A stretch of 64,000 bases of DNA. It comes from a virus. The notes beneath the pieces are model-generated. The model was not told the DNA's origin. It saw only the letters and a program-made list of their open reading frames with translations, and ran no database searches. The stretch is taken from the IMG/VR virus record IMGVR_UViG_3300029448_000015, positions 1 through 64,000 of that record; one strand, given 5' to 3'. Positions 12,373-61,128 of the stretch are shown piece after piece; the stretch's first letter is position 1, and every line of letters begins with the position of its first letter. A program made the position numbers and the translations under genes.

Positions 12373-13243
12373 TGGCTAACACCTTAAAATTTTGTTCTTG
12401 TACTTTAGGTTCTTTAACTACTTTCGTTAAAAACACTGGGCCTCTAGCATAGTTAAAGACTCTTAAATTAGGGTAACAATGATGTTTAAACTCACAATAA
12501 GAACACCCTATTGCTAATTTTCTATTTCCTAATTTACCTTCAGGGACATCTTCATAACAAAATTCTTTTGGTTCTGATTTACTAACTACTCTTTTAATAT
12601 GTTCAATCTGTTCTGCAATGTCTCCCTGAAGATTCTCATACATAGGATCTTTTTTATCTTTCAAGTCATGTTTTAAATAAGTAATGTGTCCATTCTGTTT
12701 ATCCATCGCTAACCAACCAAATTCAGTTTCATTCTCTGAATAGGCATAAGCTTTTATTTGTCCTATGTAACCAAAAGGATCGTCTTCAGCTACTTTTCTA
12801 TCTTTAAATTTTTTAAAACCAAATACTGAAGCTGATTTAACGTCAGTTAAGACACCATCTATCTTACAGTCCATAGAACCCTGAACACCTCTAACTTCAC
12901 AACGCTTTTGTTCATCAGTTACTTTATGTCCAGACATTCTAGTTAAAAACAAAAGCATTTCTTCTATGAGATGTCCGTACATAAATTTAAGTAAGGTGTA
13001 AGGCTGTAATTCTTCTGAAGGAGTTTCGTGGTATTTATTCCAAATGTATTTATCAGGTCTGCCAATTAAAGACATACGGAGTTTTCTTTTATCTTTATTA
13101 CGATCAACTAAAAATTGATTTCGCATTAACTCTTTAACTGATTCACCAAACAGTTCTATATTTTTTTCTATGTCTATTTCATCAGAAGTTTCTTTTGTAG
13201 AAAGAAGACTGTATATGTCTTCTACTAATGTGTCTGTTCCCAT
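12362..13243 (-). CDS. PD-(D/E)XK exonuclease with Cys cluster
   Basis: 293 residues. The nuclease core is GSMDCKIDGVLTDVKSA (about 121-137), with the catalytic D...D-V-K pattern. A Cys near 229 plus CSYCEFKHHC (247-256) suggests a Cas4/AddB-like Fe-S or zinc cluster. Marine T7-like phages use this type in place of T7 gp6 for host DNA breakdown and recombination. Start overlaps the polymerase stop. Homologue at 49179-50027. Confidence 0.85.
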   Translation of the reverse strand: MGTDTLVEDIYSLLSTKETSDEIDIEKNIELFGESVKELMRNQFLVDRNKDKRKLRMSLIGRPDKYIWNKYHETPSEELQPYTLLKFMYGHLIEEMLLFLTRMSGHKVTDEQKRCEVRGVQGSMDCKIDGVLTDVKSASVFGFKKFKDRKVAEDDPFGYIGQIKAYAYSENETEFGWLAMDKQNGHITYLKHDLKDKKDPMYENLQGDIAEQIEHIKRVVSKSEPKEFCYEDVPEGKLGNRKLAIGCSYCEFKHHCYPNLRVFNYARGPVFLTKVVKEPKVQEQNFKVLASEF

Positions 13244-14949
13244 GAGTCCCCCACTTTATATTCTCCGTCCAATGGACATTTTAAATTAAAACGATTACCT
13301 GCTGCTCTAATACAGCTAACTGCAAGCTTACCAAATTCTTCTGCTTTTTCTTCACTAACTTCAGATTGAATTTCATCGTGTATATTACCAACAAATTTAA
13401 AATCTATTCCCCAAAGCTTTGCATATTCATCCAACAGTACCAAAGCTTTTTTCATTACTAATGCACCTGCTGATTGTAGTAATGTATTTAATGCTGAGTG
13501 TTCTGAGCGTACAAAAAGCTGTCTCCCGTCTAACCCTTTTAGTGTTCCCTTTGATCTGACCTTTTGTACAACTCTGTCTCTAAGCTCTTTAAGTGACGGG
13601 ACACGATACAAAAATTGTTCTCTAAGAAATCTTCCATCCCCTTTGCTTCCTCCAACCACTGAACCAAGTCTTTCATCTCCTGCTCCGTACAAGAAGGCAT
13701 AGATAAAAGTTTTTGCTGTATCTCTTGATTTAAGTCCTGCAAGCTTTTGATTAAGGGAGTGTATATCTCCGTTAATAATTTCATTAGTGTACCCTTCATT
13801 ATTCATATAGTGGGCTAACATTCTCAGTTCTAAACCAGAGGCATCAACTCCGACTACTTTGTACCCTTCTTTAGCAATCCAACAAGAACGACATTCTTTC
13901 CCGTAAGGTGAATAGACTGCGGGGACTTGAGCCATATTTGGTTTAGAATGAGTAAATCTGCCAGTAACTGCACCATTAGTATTTACATACCCATGAACTC
14001 GATTGTCTTTATCTGCTACATCTAACCAACTTTGTACCTGCGCTTTTCTCTTTTGAATGGTAATGTATTCAGCAATCAGTTTAGCTTCTGGTATATCAAC
14101 ATTAGCTAACGTAGATTCATCTACAATAGGGTGATTATTATCTGTAAATTTATCAGGTTCCCATCCTGCTTTTTGTAAACAAACTGCTATCTGTTGCCTA
14201 GAAGATAAATTAAAGGGGCGATATTCTATCCTGCAAAAGTCCCCAGAAACAGTCTGCCAATCGTCACCTAAGAACTTTAAACCTACCTTACTAAACTCAT
14301 TAGTATTCTTTTTAATCTTTGGAGTAATGACTTTGATAAAAGTAAACATAGGTTTAAATGTTTTATGCACCTCATCTTCTATTGCGTATAGCTTCTCCTT
14401 AAATTCTGCTACTAAGGAAGTCGCTAAAGAGTGATCCAACAACCACCCATTGTTAATTTGTTCTTTAATTATGGACTGTACTTTGTGTTCTAGCTCGATG
14501 GAATCAGGATTAAATTCCCTTAACTCTAATTCTAATTTTTTTAGAACTTGCTCTGTAACTGCGACATCTTGCTCACAATATTTAATCATCTCACAAGATA
14601 ATTTTTCCCATTCATTATGCGAACCTTTAGGAAAGTTTAGTCTTTCTCCCCAAGCACGTAAGCTATGCCCTCCTTCTCTGGATGGGTTTGCTAGTCGAGA
14701 CAATACAAGACTGTCTAGTAATTGATAGGATGCCAGATCTACATTCCAAAGTTTCTGAAGAACAGGGAAATCAAAGGCAATGCCATTATGAGCAACAATA
14801 GTATCAACTTCGACAGTCGCTAAAGCAGCTTTAAATTCTGCTTCAGAATAAACTGTAGGAAATAGATTGGATGAACAACACCATATTCTTGTAGGTGTCA
14901 GCCCATCAGTTTCTATGTCAAGAATTAATGTGTTTAGTAATAAGTTCAT
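13225..14949 (-). CDS. DNA polymerase I family replicative polymerase (T7-like)
   Basis: 574 residues with an N-terminal 3'-5' exonuclease: Exo I DIETD at 11-15, Exo II HNGIAFDF at 54-61, Exo III YCEQD at 124-128. The family A polymerase follows: motif A VGVDASGLELR near 366, the O-helix region AKTFIYAFLYGAG, and motif C with HDE near 523. It is shorter than T7 gp5 (704 residues), as in pelagiphages. It replicates phage DNA with the primase-helicase encoded upstream. The phage B paralogue is 50330-52072. Confidence 0.95.
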   Translation of the reverse strand: MNLLLNTLILDIETDGLTPTRIWCCSSNLFPTVYSEAEFKAALATVEVDTIVAHNGIAFDFPVLQKLWNVDLASYQLLDSLVLSRLANPSREGGHSLRAWGERLNFPKGSHNEWEKLSCEMIKYCEQDVAVTEQVLKKLELELREFNPDSIELEHKVQSIIKEQINNGWLLDHSLATSLVAEFKEKLYAIEDEVHKTFKPMFTFIKVITPKIKKNTNEFSKVGLKFLGDDWQTVSGDFCRIEYRPFNLSSRQQIAVCLQKAGWEPDKFTDNNHPIVDESTLANVDIPEAKLIAEYITIQKRKAQVQSWLDVADKDNRVHGYVNTNGAVTGRFTHSKPNMAQVPAVYSPYGKECRSCWIAKEGYKVVGVDASGLELRMLAHYMNNEGYTNEIINGDIHSLNQKLAGLKSRDTAKTFIYAFLYGAGDERLGSVVGGSKGDGRFLREQFLYRVPSLKELRDRVVQKVRSKGTLKGLDGRQLFVRSEHSALNTLLQSAGALVMKKALVLLDEYAKLWGIDFKFVGNIHDEIQSEVSEEKAEEFGKLAVSCIRAAGNRFNLKCPLDGEYKVGDSWEQTH

Positions 14950-21829: not shown

Positions 21830-21860
21830 TAAATAAAAGTTGTTTGGACTTATTCGTAAA

Positions 21861-22013
21861 ATGTGGAAACTTTGGTGTCTTTCTTTAGGAGAAAAAGCAA
21901 GCGATAACTCTAAAGAAGCAGACATCGTAGCATTGTTTAGGACAGTTATTGTTTTACTTAATGCAGTAACTTGTTTATTTATTATTAGCGGTATTATTAG
22001 GCATTGGGGATAA
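21861..22013 (+). CDS. Conserved one-TM microprotein
   Basis: 50 residues: MWKLWCLSLGEKASDNSKEA, then DIVALFRTVIVLLNAVTCLF and IISGIIRHWG. A nearly identical protein is encoded at 57461-57619 in phage B, on the opposite strand inside the early block. The N-terminus is polar and conserved; the C-terminal two thirds is a TM helix ending RHW. Its TAA overlaps the next ATG. Strong conservation across divergent phages shows a selected function, not yet named. Confidence 0.75.
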   Translation: MWKLWCLSLGEKASDNSKEADIVALFRTVIVLLNAVTCLFIISGIIRHWG

Positions 22014-50040: not shown

Positions 50041-50373
50041 TTATTTCTTGTGATGTTTTATAAAATGAAATCCTCCTTTTGCAGAGGGTCTTAATGCAAC
50101 AACACCTAATTCTTTTTGTATCTCTGAGCGTTTCTTGGGCTTATAATTAGTTTTAACATCTATAAATTTAATTTCTCCTGTATCTGAAATAGCAATTAAA
50201 TCTATAGGGCCAGTACATTCACTGTTTTTAAATACTTTAAAATTATTTTCTATTAACCATATAACAGCTTTATACTCAGTAATATCTCCTATAGAGCAAG
50301 TAGATAGTTTACTTGAAGGTTCAGTAATCTTAGTGAGTTTCACTCCAGTTTTTCCCAACCTTATACTCCCCAT
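50041..50373 (-). CDS. Putative small PD-(D/E)XK nuclease
   Basis: 110 residues. GDITEYKAVIWLIENNFKVF, GPIDLIAI and IKFIDVKTNY match the E...D...D-x-K layout of restriction-like or resolvase folds, and the short length fits a stand-alone catalytic core. Overlaps the polymerase end by 44 bases. Occupies the niche of 14918-15484 in A. Confidence 0.65.
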   Translation of the reverse strand: MGSIRLGKTGVKLTKITEPSSKLSTCSIGDITEYKAVIWLIENNFKVFKNSECTGPIDLIAISDTGEIKFIDVKTNYKPKKRSEIQKELGVVALRPSAKGGFHFIKHHKK

Positions 50374-52072
50374 CTAAAGGACATCTAAGCTTTAAAAGCT
50401 CACCTGCTTGTATAATACATTCTACTCCTAACTTACCTACAGTATCAGCCATATCTTCTTTTACTTCTATTTGCCATTCATCATGAACATTAGCTACAAA
50501 ATGAGCATCTATATTATGTAACTTTTCATTTAAAAGAATTAAAGCTTTCTTCATTACAATAGAACCTGCTCCCTGTAGTAAAGTATTCAAAGCTGAATGT
50601 TCACTTCTAATTATTAACTTGCGTCCATCTAATGCTTTAATGAATCCTTTCCGTGCTTCTCTGCTAACTCTTGTTTTAAGATCATTGAATGATGGGAGAT
50701 TATTAATAAATGATTTTCTAAGGTGTGCACCAGTACGTTTAGTTCCTCCGAGAATCTCCCCAAGTCTTGAATCTCCTGCTCCGTAGAGTAATGCATAGAT
50801 GAAAGTCTTTGCCTGATTTCTTGATTCAAGCCCTGCAAGTCTTTGATTAGTGGAGTGTATGTCTCCATTAACGATTTCATTTACATACTCCTCATCATTC
50901 ATGTAGTGAGCTAACATTCTTAATTCTAATCCACTAGCGTCTACACCAACTAATTTATAATTAGGTTTAACAATCCAACAAGATCTACATTCTTTACCAT
51001 ACTTACTATACACACTAGGAGTTTGTGCTAGGTTAGGATTTCTATGGGTCATCCTACCAGTAATAGTTCCATTATGATTTACAAACCCTCTAACTCTATT
51101 ATCATCTTCTACATCAGATAACCAAGAATCTACTTGGGCTATTCTTTTTTGGAGCATTAAAAACTCAGCTAATATTTTAGCTTCTTTAATATTTTTAATA
51201 GATGCTAATATTTTTTCATCTACTTTAGCTTGTCCGGTAGGCGTAAATTCTTTTGGTTTCCATCCTAAATCTTGTAGACGTTCACCAATTTGTTTTCGTG
51301 AACCGGGATTAAATTCTGTTTCTATTACTCTCGTAATAAAAGTTTGTTGTTCAATTAAATTAAATTCTTTATCTGTTAATCGTACATTAGTACCATAATT
51401 AGTCTTACCTGTTTTTAATAACTTTTTAAGTTTATTATGGCGTGGGAATATTTTTAATACTTCTTTAGCAGGTAAAAATACTTTTCTTATTTGTCTTTGA
51501 ATCTCACTCATTCTTTCATTTAAAGTAGCAACTAACTTCATAGCTTCTTCTATGTTAAAAAGAAAACCATAGTTTCTTTGTTCATTCATAATCTTAGCTA
51601 CTGCGTGCTCTATCTCAACACTTTGTCGAGAGAACCCTAGAGATTCTTGCTTTAATCTTTCATAGACTTTGTAATTCAATAAGACATCTTGTTCGCAATA
51701 CTTCAGCATATCAGGAGTAAACTTACTGTATTCATGAAAATCTATTTTGTGACTCTTTAATATATACCCCCATCTTTCTAACCCATGTCCCCCTTCTCTT
51801 ACTGGATTAAAAAGACGGGATAAAACTAATGTATCTACTATTATTTTATTTGATAAATCTATAGAGGTAAGATTTTTTATTACAGGTATATCATATCCTA
51901 TAATGTTATGACCAATTAAAGTACCTGCCTCCATTAAAGCAGAAAGCCCTTGTTCTAATTCAGAAGGGCCATAAGATTTTTGTTCTTGAGTAGAGGTGTC
52001 TAAAATAGAAAGACACCAAAGTTTAGTAGCTTCTATGCCATCTGTTTCTATATCAAATACTAAAGATTTCAT
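50330..52072 (-). CDS. DNA polymerase I family replicative polymerase (B)
   Basis: 580 residues. Exo I FDIETDG at 6-12, Exo II HNIIGYDIP, Exo III YCEQD; polymerase motif A VGVDASGLELRM, AKTFIYALLYGAG and motif C VHDEWQ. Homologue of 13225-14949, with a divergent thumb region (210-270). Overlaps the primase-helicase stop by four bases. Confidence 0.95.
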   Translation of the reverse strand: MKSLVFDIETDGIEATKLWCLSILDTSTQEQKSYGPSELEQGLSALMEAGTLIGHNIIGYDIPVIKNLTSIDLSNKIIVDTLVLSRLFNPVREGGHGLERWGYILKSHKIDFHEYSKFTPDMLKYCEQDVLLNYKVYERLKQESLGFSRQSVEIEHAVAKIMNEQRNYGFLFNIEEAMKLVATLNERMSEIQRQIRKVFLPAKEVLKIFPRHNKLKKLLKTGKTNYGTNVRLTDKEFNLIEQQTFITRVIETEFNPGSRKQIGERLQDLGWKPKEFTPTGQAKVDEKILASIKNIKEAKILAEFLMLQKRIAQVDSWLSDVEDDNRVRGFVNHNGTITGRMTHRNPNLAQTPSVYSKYGKECRSCWIVKPNYKLVGVDASGLELRMLAHYMNDEEYVNEIVNGDIHSTNQRLAGLESRNQAKTFIYALLYGAGDSRLGEILGGTKRTGAHLRKSFINNLPSFNDLKTRVSREARKGFIKALDGRKLIIRSEHSALNTLLQGAGSIVMKKALILLNEKLHNIDAHFVANVHDEWQIEVKEDMADTVGKLGVECIIQAGELLKLRCPLDGEYKVGKNWSETH

Positions 52073-53825: not shown

Positions 53826-54071
53826 TTAGCCAGTAGTCTTTTCTTCTGTAGTTTCGCTTTCAGCTATTACTGCAGTATCATCCAAGAAACTTTCTAATTG
53901 ATTTTGTAGAGTTTCTTGGGCTGCAGTTAATATAAAAGCTTCCTTTTGATATGAATTTTTTTTAGCCAATACATTTTTTAAAGCTTCAAAGATTAATAAA
54001 GCTTGTTCAGAGTTAGGTAACTTAGAAATATCGTAAGTTATATCTCCTTTGGTATAAGTTGCATTAGTCAC
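53826..54071 (-). CDS. Hypothetical protein downstream of SSB
   Basis: About 81 residues from GTG 54071, which has GGGGAGG nine bases upstream and overlaps the SSB stop; ATG 54089 is an alternative. VTNATYTKGDITYDISKLPN, EQALLIFEALKNVLAKKN helix, acidic C-terminus. Unknown function; coupled to SSB. Confidence 0.6.
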   Translation of the reverse strand: MTNATYTKGDITYDISKLPNSEQALLIFEALKNVLAKKNSYQKEAFILTAAQETLQNQLESFLDDTAVIAESETTEEKTTG

Positions 54072-54498
54072 CGAATATTGCCTCCCCATCTTCTTCTTCA
54101 ACTTCAAACTCTGAACCATCAGGAGCATCATATTGTACAAGATCTAGTATCTGAACAGCTTGAAGTTCTAGACCTTGGAATGCTTTACCTTTCCAATTAG
54201 ATTCCCATTCTTTATATTGAACTTTAACAGTAGATCCATTACCTACCATAACATCTACTGCTTTATTAAACTTATCTACAAGTCTAGGTGCAGGTCTAAC
54301 CTTACCATTAGCTTGATTAACTTTACGTTTAATTACAATGGTAGGCCCATATTCTTTATCTTTAACTACATACCCTTTTGATCTAAAGCCATCTGCAGTT
54401 TTTTCATCTACTACTAGATCTACTGTATAGACAGGATCAAAGCGAGTGTTAGGTGATGTTATGGAAGCCCAATAAGCAGTCCCATTTACTGTAGCCAT
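54064..54498 (-). CDS. Single-stranded DNA-binding protein (B)
   Basis: 144 residues. MATVNGTAYWASITSPNTRF start, an OB-fold-like body with RPAPRLVDKFNK and WKGKAFQGLELQAVQILDL, acidic tail FEVEEEDGEAIFGD. First gene of the replication operon driven by the promoter at 54534-54561; occupies the place of 17132-17554 in A. Confidence 0.75.
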   Translation of the reverse strand: MATVNGTAYWASITSPNTRFDPVYTVDLVVDEKTADGFRSKGYVVKDKEYGPTIVIKRKVNQANGKVRPAPRLVDKFNKAVDVMVGNGSTVKVQYKEWESNWKGKAFQGLELQAVQILDLVQYDAPDGSEFEVEEEDGEAIFGD

Positions 54499-57460: not shown

Positions 57461-57619
57461 TTACCAGTGACGAAAAATTCCTGACATAATAAAAAAACAA
57501 GTTACAAAATTAACTAAAACTATTATTGTTCTAAATAAAGCTACGATATCTGCTTCCTTACTATTATCAGATGCTTTTTCACCTAAAGATTTACACCATA
57601 AGCTCCATAGTTTTTTCAT
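57461..57619 (-). CDS. Conserved one-TM microprotein (B copy)
   Basis: 52 residues: MKKLWSLWCKSLGEKASDNS, KEADIVALFRTIIVLVNFVT, CFFIMSGIFRHW. Over 70 percent identical by eye to 21861-22013 of A, but located in the leftward early block. First gene after the structured leader 57620-57820, so its expression may be controlled by it. Function unknown. Confidence 0.8.
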   Translation of the reverse strand: MKKLWSLWCKSLGEKASDNSKEADIVALFRTIIVLVNFVTCFFIMSGIFRHW

Positions 57620-57820
57620 TTTTATACCCTCAAATAAAAAGGCAGGTGGTACTAAATATATACAGGGGAAGGAATTTATATATTTAATACCTTTAGGACT
57701 CTGCCTAGCCCTTTATTAATTAGTGGTAGAGTGATACTTTAACCATTATGATAAGGTTCTTATTAAGTTAAAGTATCTAAAGAGATCTACCAATCCCTGC
57801 AGGAGGTCAATAAGAACCTT
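57620..57820 (-). ncRNA. Structured leader or small RNA candidate with pseudoknot topology
   Basis: About 200 nt between a leftward promoter and the microprotein ATG. Inverted repeats: AGGCAG/CTGCCT (57640, 57701), TAAATATAT/ATATATTTA (57653, 57678), GATACTTTAAC/GTTAAAGTATC (57733-43, 57767-77), AAGGTTCTTATT/AATAAGAACCTT (57753-64, 57809-20). The last two interleave A-B-A'-B', so they form a pseudoknot or two exclusive folds. No coding frame was found. Confidence 0.55.
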
Positions 57821-57825
57821 TAAAT

Positions 57826-57856
57826 ATTATAATCATGTAAGTATGTAACTTGTCAA
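57826..57856 (-). promoter_or_regulatory. Leftward promoter of the structured leader
   Basis: Minus strand: TTGACA (57856-57851), then TATAAT (57831-57826) at 19 nt, or ATTATA at 17 nt. Predicted start near 57819, at the first arm of the leader. The 19/17 layout recurs at 60348-60378. Confidence 0.65.
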
Positions 57857-57859
57857 CTA

Positions 57860-58501
57860 CTATAAAGAATTATTTAACATCCTTTCTCTGCTTAATATCC
57901 TGTCAATATAGTTAATAGATTTTAAAGAAATAATTTTATTTTTACTTACTTTAGTTGGCCCTTCAAAGTAAGCTGCTAAAGCTAATAATTTACTATTAAA
58001 TCTATCTTCAAGCATTGCTAGATATTTAGCTCCTAAGTCTATGTTTTTACAAGGATTATATAACTCTTCTATGTTAGTAATCCCTAACTCTTGGGCAGTT
58101 ATGGGCCATTTAATTTGCATTAACCCAATAGCATTTGCAGAGGATTTTGCTAAAGGATTAAAACTACTCTCTACACTTGCAATAGCTGCTAAATATTCTG
58201 GATCCATCCCATATCTTTCAGCAGTAATTACAAAACATTTTTTATATGGGTAAGTGTTAACAATAGGGTCAGGTATAGAAATTAAACAAGGTTTTCCGTG
58301 TATACTTTCCAATTTTTCTATTGTTAAACCTTTCCAATTTGGAATAGCTGTATTACAAACATTATCAGCGTAGATTTTTTCCATTAAAACTTCATGTTTA
58401 TAATCAGATTCGCACCCACTTAGTAAAAAAAAAATTAATAAAACTAAAACAGTTAATGGGTAAATAGATAAAGCTATTTTAAAAACATTTTTAGTTTTCA
58501 T
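57860..58501 (-). CDS. Lipoprotein lytic transglycosylase (SLT family)
   Basis: 213 residues. Signal peptide with lipobox LLSGC (TM at about 10-28, Cys at 30). SLT domain: YLAAIASVESSFNPLAKSS (catalytic Glu), GLMQIKWP, NIDLGAKYLAML, AAYFEGP. It would be exported and lipidated and cleave glycan strands in the periplasm. It lies in the early block, away from the holin and M15 lysis genes, so a role in entry, exclusion or envelope remodelling is as likely as lysis. Confidence 0.8.
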   Translation of the reverse strand: MKTKNVFKIALSIYPLTVLVLLIFFLLSGCESDYKHEVLMEKIYADNVCNTAIPNWKGLTIEKLESIHGKPCLISIPDPIVNTYPYKKCFVITAERYGMDPEYLAAIASVESSFNPLAKSSANAIGLMQIKWPITAQELGITNIEELYNPCKNIDLGAKYLAMLEDRFNSKLLALAAYFEGPTKVSKNKIISLKSINYIDRILSRERMLNNSL

Positions 58502-59334: not shown

Positions 59335-59352
59335 AATCAGCCTCCACAGCTT

Positions 59353-59404
59353 AAAAGGATTTATGTAAGTCTTTCACTACGTAAAAGACTTACTAAATCT
59401 TTTA
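59353..59404. repeat. Hairpin repeat (family member b)
   Basis: Core GTAAGTCTTT/AAAGACTTAC (59365-74, 59384-93) around the loop CACTACGTA, extended by GATTTA/TAAATC and AAAG/TTTT with one bulge. Near-identical to 59987-60028. Placed just upstream of the RBS at 59340-59350 for the 124-residue gene. Confidence 0.85.
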
Positions 59405-59407
59405 TAT

Positions 59408-59617
59408 TTATTTAACTTTAACAATTACATCGTCTTTTAAAGTAACTTGACCAAACCATTCTCTCCCTAGTCCAGTCATATGAGGTCTATTACATACAGT
59501 AAGCTCCCCATTAGATTGATATTCAAGACCAAACATAGAAGTCTCTTCATAGCTAAGTCGCTGACCTATGTGTTCCTTCATGTTTTTCTTAGATGGATAT
59601 AGTGCTAGTAATGTCAT
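59408..59617 (-). CDS. Hypothetical early protein
   Basis: 69 residues: MTLLALYPSKKNMKEHIGQR, GLEYQSNGELTVCNRPHMTG, WFGQVTLKDDVIVKVK. Beta-rich; GREWFGQVT-type motif known from other marine phage hypotheticals. SD is the GCCGTAGGAGGC cassette at 59623-59634. Confidence 0.65.
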   Translation of the reverse strand: MTLLALYPSKKNMKEHIGQRLSYEETSMFGLEYQSNGELTVCNRPHMTGLGREWFGQVTLKDDVIVKVK

Positions 59618-59963: not shown

Positions 59964-59986
59964 AATTTGCCTCCTACGGCTTAAAT

Positions 59987-60028
59987 GATTTATGTAAGTC
60001 TTTCACTACGTAAAAGACTTACTAAATC
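59987..60028. repeat. Hairpin repeat (family member c)
   Basis: GATTTA-T-GTAAGTCTTT (59987-60003), loop CACTACGTA, AAAGACTTAC-TAAATC (60013-60028). Same sequence as member b over its whole stem and loop. Upstream of the SD of the 45-residue gene. Confidence 0.85.
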
Positions 60029-60044
60029 TTTTATATATATATAT

Positions 60045-60317
60045 TTAAATAATACTAATATGACCAGTAAGTTTTACGTATTGTTTATTGAAATTAATAC
60101 ATTCTTTTTTTGGCAATTTTTCCTTTATTAAAAATAAACGATTGAATAACTTTTCTTCTTTTCTGTCTTGACGTTCCTTTTTTCTGTAACCAGAGGCACT
60201 ATATTCATCTTCGGTATCCCAAACTCTTAGGTGTTCATCTAAGAGATTCTCGTACTGACAATGTAATTTATACAGGCGATTAATTTTGTTTGTATACTTT
60301 GGATTTAATGCTTCCAT
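60045..60317 (-). CDS. Hypothetical basic helical protein
   Basis: 90 residues: MEALNPKYTNKINRLYKLHC, RVWDTEDEYSASGYRKKERQ, EKLFNRLFLIKEKLPKKECI. Helical and basic. SD is GCCGTAGGAGGC (60322-60333); promoter 60348-60378 just upstream, so it may head a transcript. Confidence 0.65.
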   Translation of the reverse strand: MEALNPKYTNKINRLYKLHCQYENLLDEHLRVWDTEDEYSASGYRKKERQDRKEEKLFNRLFLIKEKLPKKECINFNKQYVKLTGHISII

Positions 60318-60347: not shown

Positions 60348-60378
60348 ATTATAAACACAGTTAAATGTAATATGTCAA
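60348..60378 (-). promoter_or_regulatory. Leftward early promoter of B
   Basis: Minus strand TTGACA (60378-60373) with TTTATA at 17 nt (60355-60350) or TATAAT at 19 nt (60353-60348). Followed by the SD cassette of the 90-residue gene. Same form as 57826-57856. Confidence 0.65.
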
Positions 60379-60590: not shown

Positions 60591-60616
60591 ATCGGTAAAA
60601 CTCCTGCAGTTTTAAA

Positions 60617-60660
60617 AGGATTTAATAAGTCTTTCACTACGTAAAAGACTTATAAAATCT
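60617..60660. repeat. Hairpin repeat (family member d)
   Basis: ATAAGTCTTT (60625-34), loop CACTACGTA, AAAGACTTAT (60644-53), extended by GGATTT/AAATC. Loop identical to b and c; two stem bases changed together (GTAAG to ATAAG with compensating end), which supports selection for pairing. Confidence 0.85.
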
Positions 60661-60670
60661 TTTATTAATT

Positions 60671-60704
60671 AAAATTTGGGAGGCTATCAAAGGATAACCT
60701 CCCG
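60671..60704 (-). terminator. Leftward terminator after the 138-residue gene
   Basis: Stem GGGAGGTTATC/GATAGCCTCCC on the minus strand (11 bp, one wobble), followed by AAATTTTA. Directly after the stop of 60712-61128, so this gene may be transcribed mostly alone. Confidence 0.7.
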
Positions 60705-60711
60705 TTTAAAG

Positions 60712-61128
60712 CTACTTTGTTAGTAGCTTCTGAAGAAGATCTTTAATATCGTTTTGTGTTTCTTCGATATTATTCATTCGTTCTTCTAGACCTTTGAGTC
60801 GGCCTGTGGGTGAAGTTTTCACTTCTTGAACTTCTTGAACTTCTTGAACCTTCGCTTTCGCTTTGGAAGCTTTCGGAGTTGATTTTAATTTCACGGGGAT
60901 TAATTCTTTATTTGAAATCGCAAGGAACTCTTTAATATCACCCTGAGTAACAAATTGGTTATTGTTACTTGCATTTGCAATCAAACCTGCCCGAAATGAG
61001 CGTGAAGTCCAATATCTCTTAGGATCATTTTGTTTGATTCCGATCAAATCACAAAAGTGATGAGCTACCAACCATACAGCTTTTTGGTTTGCAGGATATG
61101 ACGAGTAATCGATTGTTGAATTTTCCAT
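60712..61128 (-). CDS. First leftward early gene of B
   Basis: 138 residues: ENSTIDYSSYPANQKAVWLV, HHFCDLIGIKQNDPKRYWTS, then an Ala/Lys-rich linker, VQEVQEVQEV encoded by 9-bp repeats, and a C-terminal coiled coil LKGLEERMNNIEETQNDIKD. Base composition is higher in GC than its neighbours. SD cassette GCCGAAGGAGGC. Followed by a terminator, like the first early gene of A. Function unknown; possibly an oligomeric DNA-binding protein. Confidence 0.65.
   Translation of the reverse strand: MENSTIDYSSYPANQKAVWLVAHHFCDLIGIKQNDPKRYWTSRSFRAGLIANASNNNQFVTQGDIKEFLAISNKELIPVKLKSTPKASKAKAKVQEVQEVQEVKTSPTGRLKGLEERMNNIEETQNDIKDLLQKLLTK

What the first reader, a model, noticed from the sequence alone, without database searches (positions are those of the whole stretch)
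57620..57856. Promoter-driven 200-nt leader with interleaved stems (pseudoknot or switch)
A leftward promoter at 57826-57856 would start RNA near 57819, exactly at the first arm of a 12-bp perfect stem (57809-20 with 57753-64). An 11-bp perfect stem (57767-77 with 57733-43) interleaves with it, and a 9-bp and a 6-bp stem follow before the microprotein ATG at 57619. Perfect stems of this length in A-B-A'-B' order are unlikely by chance and mimic riboswitch or attenuator logic, or a viral ncRNA.
Basis: partly seen in the sequence, partly recalled or inferred. Interest (0 to 1): 0.65.

Follow-up and report, generated by a model that had tools for sequence, protein, structure and literature searches.

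The report
Pseudoknotted RNA leader in marine phage
A marine phage related to viruses of SAR11 bacteria has a promoter whose transcript begins with a conserved, knotted RNA fold just ahead of a small membrane-protein gene; it is probably a control or stabilising element and matches no known RNA family, but only two examples could be found.

Summary
A leftward promoter (57826-57856) is followed at once by a 12-bp and an 11-bp perfect stem in A-B-A'-B' order. This pair is unique in the window; simulated sequences gave none as long. I add a third helix, C (57786-57791 with 57725-57730). One relative contig has the same promoter, core and gene order (L043). Twelve core substitutions include one compensatory U-A to C-G pair and two U-A to U-G, with one terminal pair lost (P about 0.016). 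Single-base indels argue against coding. No Rfam family matches and no third copy was found. Most likely: a 5'-terminal H-type pseudoknot leader controlling an internal phage mRNA, working like the T4 gene 32 leader but not a member of it. More novel and unproven: the conserved loop ACCUCCU is an anti-Shine-Dalgarno sequence, predicted to pair at about -14 to -19 kcal/mol with a ribosome-binding-site cassette shared by the first early genes. No transcript or binding was tested. Two sequences limit the proof.

The parts
57826..57856 (-). Promoter TTGACA-N19-TATAAT; predicted start about 57819-57821
   Evidence: Exact hexamers; same spacing and position in L043 8533
57716..57822 (-). Core structured leader RNA (about 107 nt)
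   Evidence: 88.7% identical to L043 8567-8674 with small indels; model R1 finds only these two copies
57809..57820 (-). Stem A, 5' arm (12 bp), at the predicted 5' end of the RNA
   Evidence: U-A to C-G compensatory change in L043
57753..57764 (-). Stem A, 3' arm, within the loop of stem B
57792..57808 (-). Loop L1 GACCUCCUGCAGGGAUU with anti-Shine-Dalgarno ACCUCCU (57801-57807)
   Evidence: Conserved as AACCUCCUACAGGGGAC in L043; predicted pairing to early ribosome-binding sites
57786..57791 (-).
   Evidence: Invariant in both sequences
57767..57777 (-). Stem B, 5' arm (11 bp)
57733..57743 (-). Stem B, 3' arm
   Evidence: one U-A to U-G change in L043
57725..57730 (-). Helix C, 3' arm UCUACC
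57629..57715 (-). 87-nt module with long hairpin (GGCAG/CUGCC base, then UUUUUAUUU), terminator-like, window only
   Evidence: Absent in L043, where the core runs straight into GGUAUAAAAAUG; fold; not found in other loci
57461..57619 (-). 52-aa microprotein, first gene after the leader (phrog_1679, function unknown)
   Evidence: relatives in 189 phage records, all cyanophages by name

Best explanation
It is the 5' untranslated leader of an internal phage transcript. RNA polymerase starts at about 57820 and the RNA folds at once into an H-type pseudoknot. Helix C and stem B make a hairpin; the very 5' end (stem A) pairs into that hairpin's loop, and loop L1 (17 nt) and loop L3 (9 nt) bridge the two helices. 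I infer that this buried 5' end shields the mRNA from 5'-end-dependent decay and that the knot sets translation of the microprotein and the genes behind it, much as the T4 gene 32 leader pseudoknot does, with a protein or competing pairing as the effector. Shown: promoter sequence, helices, conservation. Inferred: transcription, folding in the cell, stability and translation effects. The effector is unknown.
For: Unique interleaved 12+11-bp stems. Promoter, core and gene order kept in L043. 28 of 29 pairs are kept despite 12 substitutions, with one compensatory change and G-U tolerance, which suits RNA rather than DNA. The alternative 5' hairpin AGGUU/GACCU of the nested minimum-energy fold is broken in L043, so A/A' is the conserved pairing. 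A rough knot energy of -30.9 and -32.7 compares with -24.0 and -26.7 nested. The indels (-1, +2) break any reading frame. In L043 the knot ends about 18 nt before the start codon, and its C' strand UACC can pair with GGUA at the ribosome-binding site.
Against: Only two sequences are available, so covariation is thin (P about 0.016). An 87-nt insert in the window separates knot and start codon, so a geometry-dependent translation switch is not conserved. Other members of the microprotein family, including a second copy at 21855-22007 in the same record, lack the leader. No transcript data.
Confidence: 0.5

Rival explanations
1. A trans-acting regulatory RNA. The leader (in the window ended by the terminator-like hairpin) presents ACCUCCU in loop L1, pairs with the shared GCCGUAGGAGGC ribosome-binding-site cassette of the first early genes, and shuts off their translation as infection proceeds.
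For: Loop L1 is predicted to pair with ribosome-binding sites of genes starting at 61128, 60590, 60317, 59963, 59617 and 59334 at -13.8 to -19.0 kcal/mol, against -7.5 for its own site; in L043 five early sites score -15.7 to -17.0. The one change beside the motif (G to A) keeps pairing (G-U to A-U). L1 is in the top 0.15% or so of window 17-mers for such pairing. A terminator-like hairpin follows in the window.
Against: Any CCUCCU pairs with strong Shine-Dalgarno sequences: with random flanks about 10% do as well. Two L043 homologues of window targets pair less well (-10.8, -7.1). No terminator in L043. Noticed after the fact.
Confidence: 0.22
2. A metabolite riboswitch or transcription attenuator in which A/A' and B/B' are alternatives and the downstream hairpin is the expression platform.
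For: Terminator-like hairpin in the window; 5' leader position.
Against: The hairpin is absent in L043; no Rfam riboswitch match; stems A and B look sterically compatible, so they need not compete; the downstream gene is an unknown microprotein, not metabolic.
Confidence: 0.08
3. A DNA-level element (operator or replication origin) whose inverted repeats are protein sites rather than RNA stems.
For: Inverted repeats beside a promoter; AT-rich intergenic DNA.
Against: Changes tolerate G-U pairs, and U-A became C-G across a spacer of 44 nt; the 8-bp palindrome CCTGCAGG is not kept in L043; interleaved arms suit RNA.
Confidence: 0.08
4. No function in structure; sequence kept by recent descent.
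For: Core identity (88.7%) is similar to that of neighbouring genes (about 75-92%).
Against: Stems of this length are not expected by chance; substitutions avoid breaking pairs.
Confidence: 0.12

Closest known systems
T4/T2/RB69 gene 32 mRNA leader pseudoknot (PMC3014915)
   Same: H-type pseudoknot with coaxial helices in a phage mRNA leader, upstream of a start codon and followed by A+U-rich sequence.
   Different: Longer stems (12 and 11 bp plus helix C), placed before a microprotein gene, not the single-strand DNA-binding protein gene; no evidence of autoregulation.
ar14/NfeR1 and 'cuckoo' small RNAs of alphaproteobacteria (PMC10746234)
   Same: Unpaired anti-Shine-Dalgarno motif (CCUCCU core) able to pair with translation start sites; the closest DNA polymerase relatives of this phage infect alphaproteobacteria.
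   Different: Those have three hairpins with CCUCCUCCC; here one motif, CCUCCU followed by R-C, in a pseudoknot loop. No Rfam match.
E. coli rpsO (S15) operator pseudoknot
   Same: Leader pseudoknot that controls translation (cited alongside gene 32 in PMC3014915).
   Different: It is part of the translational operator itself (own knowledge: overlaps the ribosome-binding site); here the knot ends upstream of it.

Membership tests
T4-type gene 32 leader pseudoknot | Upstream of the phage's single-strand DNA-binding protein gene | tested here: not met
   The next gene is a phrog_1679 microprotein; the likely single-strand DNA-binding gene (54064-54498, directly before primase as in HTVC115P) lies about 3 kb further on.
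T4-type gene 32 leader pseudoknot | H-type pseudoknot in the mRNA leader | tested here: inconclusive
   Supported by two-sequence covariation and energy; no probing data.
T4-type gene 32 leader pseudoknot | Bound by the gene product, which represses its own translation | not testable with these tools
   Needs protein-binding assays.
ar14 / cuckoo small RNAs | CCUCCUCCC motif in unpaired loops of three hairpins | tested here: not met
   Single CCUCCU(G/A)C in a pseudoknot loop.
Known Rfam families, including riboswitches | Covariance-model score at gathering threshold | tested here: not met
   None in window; permissive search gives only sub-threshold hits for the window and none for L043.
Intrinsic terminator / attenuator | G+C-rich hairpin followed by a U run, conserved with the leader | tested here: not met
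   Present in window, absent from L043.

The most novel reading that the evidence does not exclude
A phage RNA that carries a copy of the 16S anti-Shine-Dalgarno sequence in a pseudoknot loop and acts in trans to switch off a set of its own early genes that share one ribosome-binding-site cassette: an RNA early-to-middle switch.
Probability: 0.15. Interest if true: 0.75.

Novelty: new variant of a known kind. Interest (0 to 1): 0.42.

Why it matters
Post-transcriptional control in phages of SAR11, among the most abundant bacteria in the sea, is almost unexplored; one library search pairing pelagiphages with small RNAs and transcriptomes found no dedicated study. A 2010 review (PMC3014915) could name the gene 32 pseudoknot as possibly the only viral pseudoknot used to autoregulate translation. 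A second, unrelated phage leader pseudoknot, and possibly an anti-Shine-Dalgarno RNA, would give a concrete and easily tested example.

Tried and rejected
Pattern scans of viral contigs for the conserved loops: all hits except L043 are coding or unrelated DNA without the stems. A protein scan of genome contigs for the neighbouring gene found no relative, and a DNA pattern scan found nothing. DNA polymerase relatives (80 loci) and isolates HTVC103P, 104P and 115P have no copy; the best weak hit, L070, is a palindromic promoter and not the element. SNORA12 (E 0.0028, below its cut-off, eukaryotic) rejected as chance: it uses the window-only insert and L043 does not match. tRNA/tmRNA: none. BLAST matches to cyanophages are to the microprotein, not to the leader. 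I first suspected a broken terminase gene after 62440; it is intact and runs past the window end.

Full report
What is there. The leftward strand holds a promoter, TTGACA (57851-57856) and TATAAT (57826-57831), 19 nt apart, directly after the stop of a transglycosylase gene (57860-58501) and about 200 nt before the ATG (57619) of a 52-aa microprotein. The inferred RNA start, 57819-57821, coincides with stem A (57809-57820 with 57753-57764, 12 bp). Stem B (57767-57777 with 57733-57743, 11 bp) interleaves with it. I add helix C (57786-57791 with 57725-57730), which encloses stem B with an 8-nt bulge on one side. No other interleaved pair in the window has both stems of 10 bp or more, and in 40 simulated windows none reached 11 bp in both.

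Is the fold sound? As an H-type pseudoknot, L1 is 17 nt up to helix C, L2 is 2 nt and L3 is 9 nt. By general A-form geometry these can span the helices (own knowledge, not modelled). Adding stem energies and a standard knot penalty of 9.6 gives -30.9 kcal/mol for the window and -32.7 for the relative, against -24.0 and -26.7 for the best nested folds. This is a rough sum, not a proper pseudoknot calculation. The nested minimum-energy fold uses a 5' hairpin AGGUU/GACCU that is not kept in the relative, whereas A/A' is.

Relatives. Of 40 viral loci encoding the microprotein, only one contig, IMGVR_UViG_3300001450_001573 (L001, L041, L043), carries the leader, in the same gene order. The core is 88.7% identical. 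Twelve substitutions fall in it; five hit paired bases: a double change U-A to C-G in A, two single changes U-A to U-G, and one that loses a pair at the inner end of A. If the same substitutions are dealt out at random, at most one broken pair occurs in 1.6% of trials. Two indels (-1 and +2) argue against a conserved reading frame. A covariance model (R1) found no third copy in the loci fetched, three pelagiphage isolates, or 43 whole records. So the element looks real but narrow, and the comparative proof rests on two sequences.

The downstream stems. It folds as a long hairpin whose base GGCAG/CUGCC is followed by UUUUUAUUU, like an intrinsic terminator. In the window it could end a free RNA of about 190 nt or attenuate the operon; it is not part of the conserved device.

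The phage. The DNA polymerase is closest (49%) to Pelagibacter phages HTVC115P, 104P and 103P. The microprotein is phrog_1679, unknown function, with relatives in 189 cyanophage records. Among the 40 viral loci with it, only this one contig has the leader, so the leader is not a fixed part of that gene family.

The promoter. Exact TTGACA-N19-TATAAT occurs twice in the window (57856 and 60378, leftward), and both sites have 19-nt counterparts in L043; one is also in L047. In 84 loci of related phages, 20 exact promoters have 17-nt spacing, three 16, and none 18 or 19. This suggests a distinct promoter class, perhaps activator-dependent; that is inference.

How it may work. Best supported: a cis-acting leader whose 5' end is buried in a helix at the start of the transcript (stability) and whose knot lies upstream of the ribosome-binding site (translation), like the T4 gene 32 leader (PMC3014915). 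It is not a member of that family: the gene is different and protein binding is untested. In L043 the C' strand UACC can instead pair with GGUA at the start site, a possible switch, but short.

The more novel reading. Loop L1 contains ACCUCCU in both phages, the same letters as the 16S anti-Shine-Dalgarno (own knowledge). Several of the first early genes share a cassette GCCGUAGGAGGC before their ATG; L1 is predicted to pair with the early sites at -13.8 to -19.0 kcal/mol in the window and -15.7 to -17.0 at five sites in L043, far better than with its own site (-7.5, -6.6). The single change next to the motif keeps the pairing. Against this, about 10% of random flanks around CCUCCU do as well, and I noticed it after the fact. 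Alphaproteobacterial ar14/cuckoo small RNAs use a CCUCCUCCC motif in this way (PMC10746234), so the mechanism has precedent, but the architecture differs.

Verdict. Observation confirmed.

Noticed in passing
window 1-64000 and L050: The 72-kb record holds two related but different phage gene sets in tandem (DNA polymerase at 13225-14949 and 50330-52072, 50% identical; primase copies 40% identical): a double or chimeric record, or tandem phages.
   Followed up: partly
window 60348-60378 and 57826-57856 (-); L043 5559 and 8533; L047 3121: Exact TTGACA-N19-TATAAT promoters preceded by GTAG, with a 19-nt spacer unlike the 17 nt seen in related phages.
   Followed up: partly
window upstream of ATGs at 60317, 59963, 59617 (-); L043 5607, 5877, 6639 (+): Several early genes share a ribosome-binding-site cassette GCCGUAGGAGGC in which the Shine-Dalgarno could sit in the loop of a tiny hairpin.
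   Followed up: partly
window 59352-59417, 59981-60046, 60612-60677: Three near-identical 66-nt intergenic repeats with hairpin AAGTCTTTCACTACGTAAAAGACTT, between early genes.
   Followed up: no
window 21855-22007 (+): A second copy of the microprotein (80% identical), just before the terminase large-subunit gene, without the leader.
   Followed up: yes
L070 135-182: A promoter embedded in a long palindrome (TTGACAAGCCCTTTAAAGTATAAT...CTTTAAAGGGCTTGTCAA) upstream of early genes in a related phage; looks like an operator or a two-way promoter.
   Followed up: no
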